Source: Leptolyngbya sp. BL0902 (GTDB taxonomy: Bacteria > Cyanobacteriota > Cyanobacteriia > Phormidesmidales > Phormidesmidaceae). From it: a DNA stretch of 64,000 nucleotides. The stretch is taken from NCBI RefSeq assembly GCF_016403105.1, contig NZ_CP046155.1, forward strand, positions 1,178,001 through 1,242,000. Direction: 5' to 3'. The position numbers were made by a program, and so were the translations under genes. Below, piece by piece: positions 4,134 through 15,945 of this stretch (positions are counted from its first letter, which is position 1; each line of letters starts with the position of its first letter). The notes below the pieces were generated by a model. The model ran no database searches and was not told the DNA's origin. It saw only the letters and a list, made by a program, of their open reading frames with translations.

Positions 4134-4472
4134 TCAAAATTGCAGGTTGATTTTTTCTTGCCAGGTCGCCCTAATCTGGGCTGCATCATCTGTTGTGATC
4201 TTCCCCATCTGGACGATCAGTAGTCGTTGTTCTAGACAATCCAGTCGAGAAAGGCGAACGGTAGAAGGAACCCGTAAACCGCCCTCCTCCCAGGCTTGTA
4301 AGGCCACATCGGTTGGGGTGCGCGGTGGGGCCGAGGTCACAGCCGCAACGACAGCATCAAAGCCATCGAGCCACAGCACCAAAACAGGCCGTTTCTTGGA
4401 GGCTTTGCCATTGGTAAAGGGAATATCAGCAAGCCAAAATTCACCCGCCGAGATGGTCATAAAGTCCCTCAT
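4134..4472 (-). CDS. MazF/PemK-like type II toxin (endoribonuclease family)
   Basis: The 112-aa product matches the MazF/PemK fold pattern: an N-terminal GEFWLADIPFTNG followed by KRPVLVLW, where MazF proteins have G-x-x-W/Y-x-v-d-f and the K-x-R-P strand. A Ser/Thr-containing strand (TVRLSRLDCL) follows, then a C-terminal helix. Known family members cleave mRNA in a sequence-specific way. The gene begins inside the end of the upstream small ORF (4441-4668), with about 32 nt overlap, which is the usual antitoxin-toxin arrangement. A second Met at 4460 is an equally plausible start and still overlaps. The cleavage specificity is unknown. Confidence 0.75.
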   Translation of the reverse strand: MRDFMTISAGEFWLADIPFTNGKASKKRPVLVLWLDGFDAVVAAVTSAPPRTPTDVALQAWEEGGLRVPSTVRLSRLDCLEQRLLIVQMGKITTDDAAQIRATWQEKINLQF

Positions 4473-5934: not shown

Positions 5935-7527
5935 ATGACCTTCACCGCTGCCCCCTTCGCCATCACCACCCCGCTCTACTACGTCAACGATTTGCCCCAC
6001 ATTGGCAGCGCCTACACCACCATCGCGGCGGACGTGGTCGCTCGGTTCCATCGCCTGACGGGGCGACCCGTGCTGATGATTACGGGCACCGATGAGCACG
6101 GCCAAAAAATCCTCCGCACCGCCGAAGAACGGGGTGTGTCGCCCCAGGATCACTGCGATCAAGTGGTCGCTGGGTTTGAAAGCCTGTGGCAGAAGTTAAA
6201 TATCCAGTGGGATCGATTTATTCGCACCACGTCGCCCCGCCACGAGGTGATTGTGCGGGAGTTTTTTCAGCGGGTGTGGGACAAGGGAGACATTTACCAA
6301 GGCCAACAACAGGGCTGGTACTGCGTGTCCTGCGAAGAATTTAAAGAAGAGCGGGATTTGTTGGACGACCACCGCTGCCCCCTGCACCCCAATAAAACCG
6401 TGGAATGGCGGGACGAGCAAAACTATTTCTTTCGCCTCTCCAACTACCAGGAAAAACTGGAGCAACTCTACGCCGAACGGCCCGATTTCATCCAACCCGA
6501 AACCCGCCGCAATGAGGTCTTGAGCTTCGTCAAACGCGGCTTGCAAGACTTTTCCATTTCCCGCGTCAATTTGGATTGGGGCTTTCCCGTCCCCACCGAT
6601 CCCGACCACACCCTCTACGTCTGGTTTGATGCCCTGTTAGGCTACGTCACGGCCCTCCAGGATGCCGATGAAGCCCCCAATTTAGAAGCCGCTGTCGCCC
6701 ACTGGTGGCCGATCAACATTCACCTAATTGGCAAGGATATTCTGCGGTTCCATGCCGTGTATTGGCCCGCCATGCTGATGTCAGCGGAATTGCCCGTGCC
6801 GGGACGAGTCTTTGGCCATGGCTTTTTGACCAAAGACGGCCTAAAAATGGGAAAAAGCCTTGGCAATACCCTCGATCCCGTGGAGTTGGTCGATAAATAT
6901 GGCTCTGACGCCGTTCGCTATTATTTCCTTCGCGAGATTGAATTCGGCAAGGATGGAGACTTTAATGAAACCCGATTTATCAACGTTCTCAATGCTGATT
7001 TGGCCAATGATTTAGGAAATCTGCTAAATCGCACCATTAAGATGGCGGCGCGTTATTGTGGAGGAAAGGTACCCCATGGGGAACCTATGTCTTTAACGGA
7101 TGATCATCGGTTGAAGGGCATGGGAACAGGCTTGGGAGAAACCGTTGCCGAGGCCTATCAACAGTTGAAATTTAGTCAGGCTTGCAGCGCTATTTTGGCA
7201 CTGGTGCAGGCGAGCAACAAGTTTCTAGACGAAGAAGCCCCCTGGAGCCTCTTTAAGCAGGGCAAACAGGCGGAGACGGAATCGGTACTCTACGCCGTGT
7301 TGGAATCGGTACGTTTAGCGGCCTACCTGCTTTCCCCCGTAGTGCCGGGGTTGAGTAATGAGATCTATCGGCAATTGGGCTACTCGGTGGACTTTAACCA
7401 GCGATCCATCGGGGATCAATTGGTCTACGGAGAACACGCCGCCTGGGGTACCTTGCCACCGGGTCAGCCCCTAGGAGAAGCCAAGCCCATTTTTCAGCGC
7501 ATTGAGATGCCTGAAGCGACAGCTTAG
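5935..7527 (+). CDS. metG: Methionine--tRNA ligase
   Basis: The enzyme charges tRNA-Met with methionine in the cytoplasm. The 530-aa protein begins with the class I signature (TTPLYYVNDLPHIGSAY, HIGH-type motif about residue 22). A zinc-knuckle insertion with CVSCEEF and a second half HRCPLH lies near residues 130-155, and the KMSKS loop is KMGKS at residues 304-308. An anticodon-binding helical region follows. There is no C-terminal tRNA-binding EMAP/Trbp111 extension, so this is the short, probably monomeric form. The ATG at 5935 sits just before the conserved N-terminus. It appears to be a single-gene unit. Confidence 0.97.
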   Translation: MTFTAAPFAITTPLYYVNDLPHIGSAYTTIAADVVARFHRLTGRPVLMITGTDEHGQKILRTAEERGVSPQDHCDQVVAGFESLWQKLNIQWDRFIRTTSPRHEVIVREFFQRVWDKGDIYQGQQQGWYCVSCEEFKEERDLLDDHRCPLHPNKTVEWRDEQNYFFRLSNYQEKLEQLYAERPDFIQPETRRNEVLSFVKRGLQDFSISRVNLDWGFPVPTDPDHTLYVWFDALLGYVTALQDADEAPNLEAAVAHWWPINIHLIGKDILRFHAVYWPAMLMSAELPVPGRVFGHGFLTKDGLKMGKSLGNTLDPVELVDKYGSDAVRYYFLREIEFGKDGDFNETRFINVLNADLANDLGNLLNRTIKMAARYCGGKVPHGEPMSLTDDHRLKGMGTGLGETVAEAYQQLKFSQACSAILALVQASNKFLDEEAPWSLFKQGKQAETESVLYAVLESVRLAAYLLSPVVPGLSNEIYRQLGYSVDFNQRSIGDQLVYGEHAAWGTLPPGQPLGEAKPIFQRIEMPEATA

Positions 7528-11779: not shown

Positions 11780-12643
11780 GTGCCGTCAGTAATTGGGATT
11801 CTCTCGTTTATTATCATCGGCTACTTAATTAGCTCGGTGCGCATTATCAACCAGGGCGAAGAAGCGCTGGTGGAACGCCTAGGCCGCTACCACCGTAAGC
11901 TCAAGCCCGGCCTGAATTTTATTGTGCCAACGCTCGACTACATCCGCCTCAAAGACAGCGTGCGGGAACGCATCCTTGATGTGGCCAAACAGGGAGCCAT
12001 CACCAAGGACAACGTCTCCCTAGAGGTGGACGCTGTGGTCTATTGGCGCATCCTAGAATTAGAACTGACCTACTACGCCATTGAAGACGTAGAGAAAGCG
12101 ATCCAAGAATTGGTGATTACCACCCTGCGCTCAGAAATTGGGAAAATGGAGTTTGAAAACACCTTTTCCTCCCGCGATGAGCTGAACCGGGCGCTGCTCT
12201 CCCAACTCGATGAAGCTACCGAACCCTGGGGCGTGAAGGTGACGCGGGTGGAGGTGCAGGAAATTGTCCCCCCCGAAGAAGTGCGCCGCTCTATGCAAAA
12301 GCAGCAGGCCGCTGAACTCGAACGACGGGCCACCGTCCTCAAAGCTCAGGGGGATCAGGAAGCCGCCATCAAACGAGCCGAAGCCACCGTGCGATCCATC
12401 CAAATGCTGTCTGACGCGCTGCAACAGCGGGACAATGCCCCCAGCATCCTACAATTTTTGATCGCCCAAGACTACGTCGAAGCCAACCAAAAGCTGGGGG
12501 CCAGCGAAAACTCCAAGGTTGTTTTTATGGATCCTAAAAATCTCACCGAAGGTCTGGCCCGCCTGATTGAACCCGACATCCCCAATAAACCCAAGGCCGA
12601 CGACGACGACTTCCCCAGCCGCCGCCGCCGTTCGGGTTCCTAG
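11780..12643 (+). CDS. SPFH/stomatin-like membrane protein
   Basis: The 287-aa protein has an N-terminal hydrophobic hairpin (about residues 4-22) and an SPFH/band-7 domain (VRIINQGEEALVERLGRY onward). A coiled-coil region rich in Ala, Glu and Lys follows (about 170-215), and it ends in a basic Arg-rich tail. It resembles the stomatin/QmcA subgroup, which forms oligomeric rings at membranes and often scaffolds proteases. No NfeD-type partner gene is adjacent. The start is a GTG at 11780 immediately before the hydrophobic segment; no strong ribosome-binding site is seen. Confidence 0.88.
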   Translation: MPSVIGILSFIIIGYLISSVRIINQGEEALVERLGRYHRKLKPGLNFIVPTLDYIRLKDSVRERILDVAKQGAITKDNVSLEVDAVVYWRILELELTYYAIEDVEKAIQELVITTLRSEIGKMEFENTFSSRDELNRALLSQLDEATEPWGVKVTRVEVQEIVPPEEVRRSMQKQQAAELERRATVLKAQGDQEAAIKRAEATVRSIQMLSDALQQRDNAPSILQFLIAQDYVEANQKLGASENSKVVFMDPKNLTEGLARLIEPDIPNKPKADDDDFPSRRRRSGS

Positions 12644-12804
12644 GACGTTTGTCTGAGTACAGGGTTACAGTTATGGGTAAAACGCATTTCGACTTCGCTT
12701 AATGCCCCCCCAAGGCAACAGGAGGGTTGAGCGCAGTCGAAACCCGGAGCCAAACTTAATTTTAATTTAGCCATTCTACTTATCAAAAACCTGGGTCTAA
12801 AACC

Positions 12805-12821
12805 CCGTCCTTTTAGGACGG
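12805..12821. repeat. Left-end hairpin of IS200/IS605 element
   Basis: A perfect 7-bp stem (CCGTCCT with AGGACGG) closes a 3-nt loop. The tnpA stop codon (TAA on the minus strand, 12813-12815) lies in it. IS200/IS605 transposases recognise such subterminal stem-loops. Confidence 0.7.
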
Positions 12822-13214
12822 CTTTTCTTGATTCTCAATATAGTCTTTGAGAACATCTAGTGGCGCTCCGCCGACAGATGAGGCAAAGTAGCTGGGACTC
12901 CACAACGATGGCTTGCCATAGGGCTTAGGATGCCCAGCCTGCCCATATCGCCGACTCGAAACCCCTTTAAGGGCATTCACCATCTGCGAAACAGAGAGCT
13001 TGGGTGGATATTCTAGGAGCAGATGTACATGATCAGCCTCTCCATTGAACTCCTTTACCTCAAAGCCCATTTTTTGCGCCACATCGGAGAATGCGCCCTC
13101 AAGAGTTTTAAGGCTTTCTGCGGTCAAAATCTTCCTGCGGTATTTCACCACGCAGACCAAATGTAGATAAAGACTGGAAACGCTATGTCTTTCGCGTCTT
13201 AGAGGTGTTGTCAT
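12813..13214 (-). CDS. tnpA: IS200/IS605 transposase TnpA (Y1 HUH)
   Basis: This is the single-strand DNA transposase of the element, 133 aa when started at the Met of MTTPLRRERHS; the 13 extra upstream residues have no family character. It shows the HUH motif (His62-Val-His64 in DHVHLLLEYPP) and the catalytic tyrosine Tyr125 in LKDYIENQ. The conserved LVCVVKYRRKIL strand lies near the start. Family members cut and join ssDNA through a 5'-phosphotyrosine link. It is divergent from the rightward gene set, with a 29-nt gap to the RHH gene that must contain both start regions. Confidence 0.92.
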   Translation of the reverse strand: MTTPLRRERHSVSSLYLHLVCVVKYRRKILTAESLKTLEGAFSDVAQKMGFEVKEFNGEADHVHLLLEYPPKLSVSQMVNALKGVSSRRYGQAGHPKPYGKPSLWSPSYFASSVGGAPLDVLKDYIENQEKPS

Positions 13215-13243
13215 TGTACGGCTTAATGCTGTACAATGTAGGC

Positions 13244-13381
13244 ATGGAAGCACAAACCGAGAAAATCACTATCAGGCTAACTAAGGCCGAAAAACTTGCA
13301 TTAGTTAGTTACTGTCGCGCTGTAGGACGGAATCAATCCGATGTCATTAGGGAATTTATAAGGAGATTGCAAAATGATTAA
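13244..13381 (+). CDS. Small ribbon-helix-helix-like protein in IS605 element
   Basis: This is a 45-aa ORF starting at the ATG at 13244. It opens MEAQTEKITIRLTKAEK, a beta strand of the form x-I-T-I-R-L-T, followed by two predicted helices (KLALVSYCRAV and QSDVIREFIRRL). That is the MetJ/Arc/CopG pattern. The stop overlaps the start of the GIY-YIG gene (ATG at 13374) by 8 nt, so translation is probably coupled. It could be a DNA-binding repressor or antitoxin-like regulator of the element. Function is inferred from fold pattern only. Confidence 0.65.
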   Translation: MEAQTEKITIRLTKAEKLALVSYCRAVGRNQSDVIREFIRRLQND

Positions 13382-13844
13382 AAGCTTGGAAGATGCCAAG
13401 TTGCTCAATCCCCTAGATCTCTCTTTCGTTAGTTTCAATCATAAGCCAAGACAATACCCTAGGCAGAGTGGCGTGTATTTCATTGCGGAGGGCACAAAGA
13501 TTCTTTATGTAGGTAGAGCCTTGAACTTGTATTCAAGGTTGTCTAATCATTCTAGAAGAAAGCAGTTTTCTGAAAACAACTACTCAATTTCTTGGATATT
13601 GGTTGACAAGAAAGTTCCGGACGTTGTAGAGAATTTTTTGATTTCAAAGTTTACGCCTCCCATAAATGAGAGTCCTACAGGAAAAGATGATGACTCATGG
13701 GCTTTACATTCTTTAATTGCTGATTTAGGCTACGACAACCCAGATCTCCTAAATCAAAGAGAGGACGACATCAAGCAATCTTTTCTAAGCATGGTGCAAC
13801 TATTTAAGGATGGCTCCCATCCAGCGAGTTATTTAATCAATTAG
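13374..13844 (+). CDS. GIY-YIG nuclease domain protein inside IS605 element
   Basis: The 156-aa protein has one GIY-YIG domain at about residues 28-100: Gly33-Val-Tyr35, then Tyr45-Val-Gly47 in ILYVGRALNLYSRLSNH, with Arg55, His59, Glu86 in VENFLISKF and Asn98. These match the catalytic Tyr, Arg, His, Glu and Asn positions of the superfamily (UvrC N-terminal domain, I-TevI), so it looks active. The 60-residue C-terminal part is helical with no motif I know. It starts inside the RHH gene's stop and ends 10 nt before tnpB, so the three genes probably form one transcript. A homing-type or DNA-cutting accessory role is inference. Compared with tnpB this gene is visibly more A/T-rich. Confidence 0.8.
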   Translation: MIKSLEDAKLLNPLDLSFVSFNHKPRQYPRQSGVYFIAEGTKILYVGRALNLYSRLSNHSRRKQFSENNYSISWILVDKKVPDVVENFLISKFTPPINESPTGKDDDSWALHSLIADLGYDNPDLLNQREDDIKQSFLSMVQLFKDGSHPASYLIN

Positions 13845-13853
13845 CATATACCA

Positions 13854-15035
13854 ATGAAAGCCCGCTATCAGTACCGAATCTACCCGACCAACCAACAGAA
13901 GCAAAGTCTTGCTCAACTGTTCGGCTGCGTTCGGGTAGTTTTCAATGATGCGCTGGCATTCTCGAAGGAGTCTGGAAAATACCCAGGGGTTAGTGTCCTG
14001 TCATCTCAGCTCACGCTGTCTAAGAAGACGGCTGAACGGGAGTGGCTTAAGGACGTGTCTTCCGTGCCATTGCAACAAGCCCTGCAAGACCTGGATGTTG
14101 CCTATCGCAACTTCTTCAAGTCGATCAAGGGTGAGCGTAAAGGGCCGAAGGTCAGTCCCCCTCGGTTCAAAAAGAAGACCAGTCAGCAATCAGCTAGATT
14201 TGCGAAAACAGCATTTAAGCTGAAGGCATCCAAGGTCTACTTGGCTAAAATTGGGGATCTAAAAACCAAGTGGTCTAGGCCACTACCTTCTGAACCCAGT
14301 TCAGTCACGGTCATCAAAGACTGTGCAGGGCGGTACTTCCTGAGTTTTGTAGTCGAGATTCTACCTGTCACCGTCGAGCCTGAAAACCAAGGGGTCGGCG
14401 TGGATCTGGGAATCAAAACTTTTGCCGTGCTAAGCACTGGCGAGAAGGTGTCCTCCCCGAATTACGACAAATTGAACCGCAAGATTCGCCGTGAACAGCG
14501 AAAGTTGGCAAGACGGATTAAGGGATCAAAGCGTCGTGAACGGGTTAGACTCCGTATCGCTAAACTGCAAGCGAGAAAAGCCGATATTCGCAAAGATTTT
14601 CTACACAAGCTGTCTACTCGTCTAGTTCGAGAAAACAGTGTTGTGGCCCTAGAAGATCTCAACGTGTCGGGAATGGTCAAAAACCGCTGCTTAGCCCGTG
14701 CTATCAGCGAGGCTGGTTGGGGGACATTTAGGGCAATGTGCGAAGCTAAGTCTACGGTAATTGAGGATCGGCAAACGGTGGTGATTAGCCGCTGGGAACC
14801 CACTTCTCAGATTTGCTCAGGCTGTGGCTATCGCTGGGGCAAACTAGATCTCTCTGTCCGAGAGGTGGTCTGCTTGAATTGTGGTTCTATGCATTGTCGT
14901 GATGGCAATGCCGCCAAAAACATCGAAAAATCTGGGCTGGAGCTAGCCCAAGATTCAAACTGGACGGGGAGGGTATGTAAGACTGGCTTGCCAGCAATGC
15001 CTGCTGAACCGTCTACCTGTCTGGACGTAGCCTAG
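13854..15035 (+). CDS. tnpB: RNA-guided nuclease TnpB (IS605 OrfB)
   Basis: The 393-aa protein has an N-terminal helix-turn-helix region (KARYQYRIYPT, QLFGCVRVVFNDAL) and a split RuvC nuclease with Asp184 in GVDLGIKTF, Glu267 in VALEDLNVSGM and Asp350 in HCRDGNAAKN. A zinc ribbon has Cys321/Cys324 and Cys340/Cys343. All catalytic and zinc residues are present. TnpB proteins use an omega-RNA from the element's right end to cut DNA and help keep the element at its donor site. The omega-RNA here would cover the end of tnpB and the right-end hairpin, with its guide read from the flank beginning near 15081. Confidence 0.95.
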   Translation: MKARYQYRIYPTNQQKQSLAQLFGCVRVVFNDALAFSKESGKYPGVSVLSSQLTLSKKTAEREWLKDVSSVPLQQALQDLDVAYRNFFKSIKGERKGPKVSPPRFKKKTSQQSARFAKTAFKLKASKVYLAKIGDLKTKWSRPLPSEPSSVTVIKDCAGRYFLSFVVEILPVTVEPENQGVGVDLGIKTFAVLSTGEKVSSPNYDKLNRKIRREQRKLARRIKGSKRRERVRLRIAKLQARKADIRKDFLHKLSTRLVRENSVVALEDLNVSGMVKNRCLARAISEAGWGTFRAMCEAKSTVIEDRQTVVISRWEPTSQICSGCGYRWGKLDLSVREVVCLNCGSMHCRDGNAAKNIEKSGLELAQDSNWTGRVCKTGLPAMPAEPSTCLDVA

Positions 15036-15050
15036 CTATTCCAGCGAATC

Positions 15051-15080
15051 CCCGCACCTTTAGGTCGGGGAGGATGTCAA
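15051..15080 (+). repeat. Right-end hairpin and cleavage site of IS605 element
   Basis: A 5-bp stem (CCCCG with CGGGG) carries a bulged C and an inner ACCT/AGGT pairing, and is followed by GGATGTCAA. This is the usual right-end architecture of tnpB-bearing cyanobacterial elements, with cleavage after TCAA. It is also expected to be the 3' scaffold of the omega-RNA. Confidence 0.65.
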
Positions 15081-15141
15081 CGCTGATCTAGCGTTTGATG
15101 GCTGTGTGATCTACTGTGACTCACCCTGGGCTGCGTCATCG

Positions 15142-15945
15142 TTAGGTAAGTCCATCGACCCTAGGCACGCCCTCTAGGGCCGAACTGACCTGGGGAGTAA
15201 TGCCTAAACCATCGCGGCTGCTGGTTAGTACCTCTACGGCTCGCTTCAGCTTGGCCTCTAGGTAGCGCTTTTGATCGACCAACTGACGCAGCTTTTGATG
15301 GCGGGCGATGGCCAAACTGAGGGTTGAGACTTGCTCTGGTGGGCAGGGCATACACTGCAACTGACCATCGGCATTGAGGCTACAGAGGCGGTAGCTGGGC
15401 GGCGCGGCGGATGCTGAAGCCTCCTGGCTCTCCTGTCCCTGAGTTTCCTGGGATTCGCATAGCCGATCCACATAGCCCGAAAGCGCCTGGGGATCGGCAT
15501 GGCGCAGGAGGGCCGCTGCATCCTGGGTGGAGGGGGCGGGGCCGTCCGTGGCCTCTAGCCAGCCATCGACAATCGGGCCTTCCAGGTACAGGTTTTGAAT
15601 GATTTGCACCGTTTGCCGCAGTTCGCTGTGCCAGCTTTCCACCGCCAGATGAATATCCTGAAGCACCTTGAGGGCAAGGGCTGGGTTGGCATCGTGGCGG
15701 TGGCGGCTAAAGGTAGGACGCTTCGCCGTCGAGGCTCCCGCAATCAGGGCGACATCTCCGAGGGGCAGCGACAAACCCTGAGGGCTCTGGCCTGCTTCCC
15801 CTGGTTGTGGCCCCTGACGGCCCAGGGCGGATGTTCTGGGGGTGAGGTCAAAGGACACAGGCCGCTGGGGAGGCCGCAGCATATGAGGCCCAACTCCATG
15901 GGGGGCGGTGGGCCGAGAAGGATCGAGATTGGGCAAACTGGCCAT
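15142..15945 (-). CDS. Cyanobacterial conserved hypothetical protein
   Basis: No named function. I start it at the Met of MASLPNLDPSRP (15945); the open frame extends to 16065 but the extra 40 residues look like unrelated coding noise. The first ~90 residues are Pro/Gly-rich and probably disordered. The centre holds the most conserved-looking block, a helical stretch LKVLQDIHLAVESWHSEL followed by QIIQNLYLEGPIVDGWLE. The C-terminal 60 residues form a coiled coil (HQKLRQLVDQKRYLEAKLKRA). There is no signal peptide or membrane segment. It is transcribed away from the small membrane protein upstream. Confidence 0.65.
   Translation of the reverse strand: MASLPNLDPSRPTAPHGVGPHMLRPPQRPVSFDLTPRTSALGRQGPQPGEAGQSPQGLSLPLGDVALIAGASTAKRPTFSRHRHDANPALALKVLQDIHLAVESWHSELRQTVQIIQNLYLEGPIVDGWLEATDGPAPSTQDAAALLRHADPQALSGYVDRLCESQETQGQESQEASASAAPPSYRLCSLNADGQLQCMPCPPEQVSTLSLAIARHQKLRQLVDQKRYLEAKLKRAVEVLTSSRDGLGITPQVSSALEGVPRVDGLT

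What the first reader, a model, noticed from the sequence alone, without database searches (positions are those of the whole stretch)
12783..15080. IS200/IS605 element carrying an RHH protein and an intact GIY-YIG nuclease between tnpA and tnpB
Seen: a leftward tnpA, then three rightward genes with tight spacing (8-nt overlap, 9-nt gap): a 45-aa RHH-like protein, a GIY-YIG protein with all catalytic positions (Tyr35, Tyr45, Arg55, His59, Glu86, Asn98) and tnpB with intact RuvC and zinc residues. Known: IS605 elements normally hold only tnpA and/or tnpB, and TnpB is an RNA-guided nuclease that biases element retention. Inference: a second, protein-guided nuclease under a small regulator may cooperate with TnpB (homing, target choice, plasmid interference) or form an addiction module. 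The A/T-rich GIY-YIG gene looks acquired. This is the best candidate in the window for an undescribed system.
Basis: partly seen in the sequence, partly recalled or inferred. Interest (0 to 1): 0.68.

Follow-up and report, generated by a model that had tools for sequence, protein, structure and literature searches.

The report
Jumping gene with an extra nuclease
A cyanobacterial jumping gene of a kind that usually carries a transposase and an RNA-guided DNA cutter has also picked up a small DNA-binding protein and a second, protein-type DNA cutter in one tightly packed gene row; an unrelated jumping gene in another cyanobacterium has the same row, so it looks like a rare but real variant whose function is untested.

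Summary
One IS200/IS605-type element (about 12786-15080) carries tnpA (leftward) and, rightward, a 45-aa RHH-like protein, a GIY-YIG protein and tnpB, with an 8-nt overlap and a 9-nt gap. Active-site residues of the three enzymes are present. The RHH-GIY pair stands where a same-genus relative has only a short tnpA-tnpB spacer; homology resumes exactly at the tnpB start codon. A peptide-pattern scan of 84,980 species genomes found no close relative of the nuclease. Yet the same RHH-GIY-tnpB order, with an 8-nt GIY-tnpB overlap, recurs inside a second element (uncultured cyanobacterium PMM_0085) whose TnpB BLASTP cannot align to this one, whose RHH is only distantly similar, and which has no tnpA. 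That is 2 of 177 GIY ORFs examined: rare. Related GIY genes otherwise occur elsewhere in cyanobacterial genomes and plasmids, some behind a small RHH or HTH gene. A palindrome covers the RHH promoter-like site and the tnpA start codon, which suggests RHH autoregulation. Most likely the nuclease is an accessory of the element under RHH control; a captured passenger is nearly as likely. No activity is shown. New variant of a known kind.

The parts
12786..12826 (.). left end of the element with subterminal hairpin (arms 12800-12811 / 12815-12826)
   Evidence: the repeat finder; homology to L034 starts at 12778; a similar block, by eye, at the left ends of L034, L037, L038, L044, L045; the first base is approximate
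12813..13214 (-). tnpA, Y1 (HUH) transposase, 133 aa from ATG, HVH and a DYIE tyrosine present
13208..13237 (+). promoter-like site TTGTCA-18-TACAAT ahead of the RHH-GIY-tnpB unit
   Evidence: 10 of 12 matches; 6 promoter-like sites in the region against a shuffle mean of 2.6, sd 2.1, so weak by itself
13212..13238 (.). palindrome CATTGTAC-N11-GTACAATG, candidate RHH operator; left arm starts with the tnpA start codon, right arm holds the -10 hexamer
   Evidence: 15 of 1000 dinucleotide shuffles of the -70..+20 region reach an 8-nt arm
13244..13381 (+). 45-aa RHH-type DNA-binding protein
   Evidence: below cut-off; homologues up to 62% identical, 5 of 6 scanned pass Pfam RHH_1
13374..13844 (+). 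156-aa GIY-YIG nuclease, catalytic-type positions present
13854..15035 (+). tnpB, 393 aa, RuvC-type motifs and zinc-ribbon cysteines present
15049..15071 (+). right-end hairpin, followed by GGATGTCAA at the element end (about 15080)
   Evidence: z -1.15, the fold alone is not significant; similar block, by eye, in L034, L037, L045, and homology to L034 up to 15080

Best explanation
This is an IS200/IS605-type element that acquired a small DNA-binding protein gene and a GIY-YIG nuclease gene directly ahead of tnpB, forming one co-directional RHH - GIY-YIG - tnpB unit divergent from tnpA. Shown by sequence: the layout, element ends shared with relatives, the junction at the tnpB start codon, intact active-site residues, a palindrome on the promoter-like site that includes the tnpA start codon, and one independent recurrence. 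Inferred: the RHH protein binds that palindrome and keeps the unit (and perhaps tnpA) low; when expressed, the GIY-YIG protein nicks or cuts DNA at a limited set of sites or structures and, beside RNA-guided cutting by TnpB, raises movement or retention of the element as an accessory nuclease. A published precedent is the bacterial Tsy transposon, whose GIY-YIG gene, encoded with a small HTH protein, improves transposition but is not essential.
For: Residues intact. Homology to L034 resumes exactly at the tnpB ATG. Second element L096 (contig CASBQJ010000319.1): RHH overlaps GIY by 20 nt and GIY overlaps tnpB by 8 nt, between ends closely similar to those of an element on a Planktothrix plasmid, L350 (TnpB 73%), which has tnpA-tnpB in one direction with the same 8-nt overlap; so RHH-GIY stands where tnpA stands in L350. 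BLASTP finds no meaningful alignment of the two TnpBs, the GIYs are 36% identical over 92 aa, and the two RHHs score 35 against 104-114 for the window RHH versus two tnpB-flanking RHHs: two separate assemblies of one layout. Both loci have a perfect palindrome near the RHH start; L096's has 16-nt arms, 0 of 1000 shuffles. Tsy precedent: PMC10293859, passages seen.
Against: Only 2 of 177 GIY ORFs of at least 80 aa are in tandem with tnpB. GIY is absent from 29 of 29 window-type TnpB loci, and tandem GIY from 16 of 16 L096-type loci, though at least four of these 16 are partial. The closest L096-type TnpB, L349 (76%), has tnpA divergent, not co-directional. No close homologue was found, so purifying selection could not be measured. 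The window palindrome is only modestly unusual (15 of 1000), and 4 of 6 other DNA-binding + GIY pairs show none. L096 comes from a metagenome-assembled genome. There are no binding, nuclease or transposition data. Most GIY relatives lie away from any tnpB seen in their loci.
Confidence: 0.43

Rival explanations
1. Captured passenger: a DNA-binding-protein + GIY-YIG cassette of plasmid or phage origin was picked up between the ends and rides along, serving itself or the host (for example against other plasmids), with no mechanistic link to TnpB.
For: Related GIY genes occur widely without tnpB, and 56 of 152 had a small ORF tightly upstream by a mechanical test. Of 15 upstream genes that I chose by eye and scanned, the two IS-borne ones included, 8 gave RHH-family hits (4 above, 4 below curated cut-offs), 4 HTH and 3 none. 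Low G+C relative to tnpB. Rare beside tnpB.
Against: Both cases have the same order, orientation and tight coupling to tnpB, at the same side; the window RHH is nearer to RHHs that flank tnpB (scores 114 and 104) than to four RHH or small proteins of other GIY pairs (17-28).
Confidence: 0.4
2. Addiction module: RHH is the antitoxin and the GIY-YIG nuclease a toxin that punishes loss of the element.
For: Small RHH gene ahead of and overlapping an enzyme gene, palindrome at the promoter-like site; a sub-cut-off RelB-antitoxin hit of the RHH protein (12.8 of 50 bits).
Against: No toxin-family hit for the nuclease in Pfam, NCBIfam, PHROGs or PADLOC at the limits used; upstream partners of related GIY genes are of unrelated RHH and HTH families, unlike a dedicated antitoxin.
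Confidence: 0.09
3. Chance neighbourhood: the element inserted around, or next to, an unrelated gene pair.
For: Single copy in this genome and no close homologue found.
Against: The pair lies between ends shared with a relative and abuts the tnpB start codon, and the layout recurs in an unrelated element.
Confidence: 0.04

Closest known systems
IS200/IS605 family (tnpA divergent from tnpB, as in most of L034-L062)
   Same: Y1 transposase, TnpB, hairpins near both ends, overall layout
   Different: two extra genes between tnpA and tnpB; 29 of 29 related loci, one per genome, TnpB 61-78% identical, carry no GIY gene within 1.5 kb; 21 of 29 have a tnpA match and 2 have an RHH divergent from tnpB instead
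Tsy transposon (YRec-HTH-TnsF-GIY-YIG; PMC10293859, passages seen)
   Same: bacterial transposon with a small DNA-binding protein and an accessory GIY-YIG nuclease that improves transposition
   Different: tyrosine recombinases and comM targeting instead of a Y1 transposase and TnpB; relatedness of the GIY proteins not tested
PGv-1 Mariner element with GIY-YIG nuclease and Fanzor1 (PMC3627910, passages seen)
   Same: a transposon that also pairs a GIY-YIG nuclease with a TnpB homologue
   Different: Tc/mariner transposase, in a virus of eukaryotes; relatedness of the GIY proteins not tested
Cyanobacterial plasmid DNA-binding-protein + GIY-YIG pairs (e.g. Nostoc pC052_G, L093)
   Same: small RHH or HTH gene overlapping a related GIY-YIG gene
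   Different: no tnpB beside them in the loci read
IStrons (PMC4227781, passages seen)
   Same: IS605-type element fused with another mobile function
   Different: the partner is a group I intron; no intron match here

Membership tests
IS200/IS605 element | Y1 HUH transposase with HxH and catalytic Tyr | tested here: met
IS200/IS605 element | TnpB with RuvC D/E/D and zinc ribbon | tested here: met
IS200/IS605 element | hairpins near the ends and ends shared with related elements | tested here: met
   right hairpin
IS200/IS605 element | guide RNA at the right end | tested here: inconclusive
   only a sub-threshold Rfam hit (HgcC, 20.5 of 50 bits); fold z -1.53
IS200/IS605 element | defined empty target site | tested here: inconclusive
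   left flank has a match in 26 of 26 genomes of the genus, own included; the right flank did not align in the 19 relative loci checked, which hold 1.5 kb beyond the match
GIY-YIG nuclease superfamily | GIY/YIG tyrosines, Arg, His, Glu, Asn at catalytic positions | tested here: met
GIY-YIG nuclease superfamily | DNA cleavage activity | not testable with these tools
   needs a biochemical assay
homing endonuclease | cuts alleles that lack the element | not testable with these tools
   no empty site established; no assay
type II toxin-antitoxin system | antitoxin-type gene ahead of and overlapping partner, palindrome at promoter | tested here: met
   (layout only)
type II toxin-antitoxin system | partner belongs to a known toxin family | tested here: not met
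Tsy transposon | tyrosine recombinases YRec and TnsF | tested here: not met
   element genes hit Y1_Tnp, RHH-like, GIY-YIG and TnpB families
IStron | group I intron within the element | tested here: not met
   no intron match in 12600-15300

The most novel reading that the evidence does not exclude
A two-nuclease transposition or retention system: a protein-targeted GIY-YIG nuclease and RNA-guided TnpB, made from one RHH-repressed operon, act together to keep or spread the element. In the PMM_0085 version the GIY-YIG gene stands where a related element has its transposase, so homing-like copying could replace peel-and-paste transposition.
Probability: 0.2. Interest if true: 0.8.

Novelty: new variant of a known kind. 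Interest (0 to 1): 0.5.

Why it matters
IS200/IS605 elements are the source of RNA-guided nucleases and are usually seen as minimal: tnpA, tnpB and a guide RNA (recalled). A second nuclease in the tnpB gene row, assembled at least twice with very different TnpBs and regulators, would show that these elements can recruit protein-guided nucleases, as Tsy transposons did and as a virus-borne Mariner element with Fanzor appears to have done. The PMM_0085 element, where the cassette sits in the tnpA slot, makes the question 'can a GIY-YIG nuclease substitute for, or boost, the transposase' directly testable in a laboratory host.

Tried and rejected
Disfavoured: that the element merely inserted around a stand-alone gene pair (junction with L034; L096/L350 comparison). 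Rejected: that the pair is common in this TnpB clade (0 of 29). Not counted as cases: L097, an RHH divergent from a truncated tnpB start and then a GIY gene, no right end seen; L352, a GIY gene convergent behind tnpB; L325, tnpB about 700 bp behind a GIY gene; L023/L201, L024/L098, L130 and L209-L212, where tnpB is on the other strand or more than 1 kb away.

The structure model of the GIY protein was poor (mean pLDDT 43.4, two sequences), so I made no fold search. Profile search of solved structures gave UvrC (E 2e-5) and endonuclease II (E 0.004) as nearest. PADLOC named PDC-S14, weak (best E 1e-4). No confirmed relative in IMG/VR pattern scans. Nine phage records with weak hits, none covering 80% of the query.

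Limits of the counts: the 177 GIY ORFs (at least 80 aa, my own profile, none contained in another, 25 of them 350 aa or longer) come from the loci held, not from every genome. Of the places that were new against I fetched 60 and left about six; a few places without loci were also left. Loci from the genome search hold 1.5 kb on each side. The L034-L062 set is one best locus per genome. Of the 69 plasmid records with an L096-type TnpB I read eight. Genomes are the same draw of 388; that (308) overlaps it.

Papers: searches. In the listings, and in the passages opened (PMC3627910, PMC8987985, PMC11656645, PMC10293859, PMC4227781, PMC5718144, PMC3984707, PMC3073962), I saw no description of a GIY-YIG gene in an IS200/IS605 element. 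Not every listed paper was opened, one search listed 15 of 22, only open-licence papers are held, and two relevant papers were not held.

Full report
What is there. Window 12786-15080 is one IS200/IS605-type element. tnpA (12813-13214, minus; Y1_Tnp) is divergent from three plus-strand genes: a 45-aa RHH-like protein (13244-13381), a 156-aa GIY-YIG protein (13374-13844) and tnpB (13854-15035). Active-site positions of tnpA, the GIY-YIG protein and TnpB are present. The RHH label of the 45-aa protein is itself below Pfam cut-offs; its homologues carry it (5 of 6 scanned pass RHH_1).

Ends and junction. The closest relative found, L034 from the same genus (TnpB 78%), aligns with window 12778-13073 and 13854-15080. 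In L034 the tnpA and tnpB matches are divergent and about 35 bp apart, with a promoter-like stretch in between by eye; in the window RHH-GIY stands there, and homology resumes at the tnpB ATG. Of 29 loci with related TnpBs (61-78% identity, one locus per genome), 29 lack a GIY gene, 21 have a tnpA match and 2 (L051, L057) a small RHH gene divergent from tnpB instead.

Distribution of the nuclease. The genome holds one copy. Of 388 genomes of the class, 84, own included, have a GIY match at E 1e-3 or better to the window protein, the best other one 39% identical; 107 of 388 match the L096 protein; 39 of 308 phylum genomes match it at 1e-6. A scan with six exact 8-residue patterns found no relative in the 84,980-species collection, and pattern scans of viral contigs none. 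On plasmids 21 records match the window protein, none over 80% of it, and 41 match the L096 protein, 2 over 80%. By a mechanical test 56 of 152 GIY ORFs have a small ORF tightly upstream. I chose 15 upstream genes by eye, the two IS-borne ones included: 8 gave RHH-family hits (4 above and 4 below curated cut-offs), 4 HTH, 3 nothing.

The recurrence. G261 contig 319, which is CASBQJ010000319.1 of uncultured cyanobacterium PMM_0085, encodes RHH (54 aa from the first ATG at 4340, 45 aa from the second at 4367), GIY-YIG (145 aa) and TnpB (422 aa) with 20-nt and 8-nt overlaps. BLASTP finds no meaningful similarity between the two TnpBs; the GIYs share 36% over 92 aa; the two RHHs score 35, against 114 and 104 for the window RHH versus RHHs that flank tnpB in L064 and L069. 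A Planktothrix plasmid element, L350 (TnpB 73%), has closely similar left and right ends and carries tnpA-tnpB in one direction with an 8-nt overlap. So in PMM_0085 the RHH-GIY pair occupies the slot that tnpA has in L350. Other relatives (L349, TnpB 76%; L351; L355) have tnpA divergent. Of 16 L096-type TnpB loci none has a tandem GIY gene, but at least four are partial. A 96%-identical partial copy in a second genome (L274) stops matching at 6199, at the right end. Over the loci held, 2 of 177 GIY ORFs of at least 80 aa lie within 60 nt of a co-directional tnpB: the window and PMM_0085. I take this as two independent assemblies of one rare layout.

Regulation. A perfect palindrome, CATTGTAC-N11-GTACAATG (13212-13238), covers the tnpA start codon and the -10 hexamer of the promoter-like site. 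In shuffles 15 of 1000 do as well, so alone it is suggestive only. The PMM_0085 locus has 16-nt arms (4328-4372) over the second RHH start codon, 0 of 1000 shuffles. Against a general rule: of six other DNA-binding + GIY pairs four show no arm of 7 nt or more and two show 7-nt arms, and of 32 other RHH homologues seven show such a palindrome near the start.

How it most likely works. The RHH protein represses the unit and perhaps tnpA through the palindrome; the GIY-YIG protein is an accessory nuclease of the element, working beside TnpB. This is inference. It rests on the shared layout, intact residues and a precedent: in the Tsy transposon a GIY-YIG nuclease encoded with a small HTH protein improves transposition without being essential (PMC10293859, passages). 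A second precedent, by gene content only, is the PGv-1 Mariner element with GIY-YIG and Fanzor1 (PMC3627910, passages). The rival of a captured passenger is almost as likely (0.40 against 0.43), because the layout is rare and no close homologue allows a test of selection.

Known or new. As an element it is an IS200/IS605 member; the layout was not seen in the listings and passages that I saw (opened passages). I rate it a new variant of a known kind.

Noticed in passing
L051, L057, L064, L069, L071, L075, L079, L081, L090, L091, L029: Small RHH genes lie divergent from and within about 120 bp of tnpB, where other elements have tnpA: 11 of 32 distinct RHH homologues other than the window's, with TnpBs from about 25% to 63% identical to the window's. 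It looks like a regulator that recurs with tnpA-less elements; L065-L067 were ambiguous and not counted.
   Followed up: partly
12656-12782: About 127-bp dispersed repeat ending just before the left end of the element; at least 16 further places in the same genome (capped at 18 scored of 59 candidates); eight copies read, all ending near the same base and followed by different sequence.
   Followed up: partly
L007, L009, L020: GIY-YIG genes followed by a KilA-N gene (L007) or AntA-type antirepressor-like genes (L009, L020, below cut-off; L020 114 bp away) and preceded by small ORFs: perhaps a cassette with a variable third gene; a fourth downstream gene (L012) gave no hit.
   Followed up: partly
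L096:4915-6183: TnpB of the PMM_0085 element reads VVFGWNKG where the window TnpB seems to have ALEDLN; possibly a relocated RuvC glutamate (recalled, not tested).
   Followed up: no
L097:2737-3972: Left end like the window's element by eye, RHH gene, tnpB cut off after about 50 codons, then a 219-aa GIY-YIG gene; perhaps a decayed third case.
   Followed up: partly
L352:1755-3653: On a Cylindrospermopsis plasmid a GIY-YIG gene lies tail to tail about 70 bp behind an L096-type tnpB, beside a thermonuclease gene.
   Followed up: no
14969-15092: Sub-threshold Rfam match to HgcC (20.5 of 50 bits, E 0.078) over the right end, where a TnpB guide RNA is expected.
   Followed up: no
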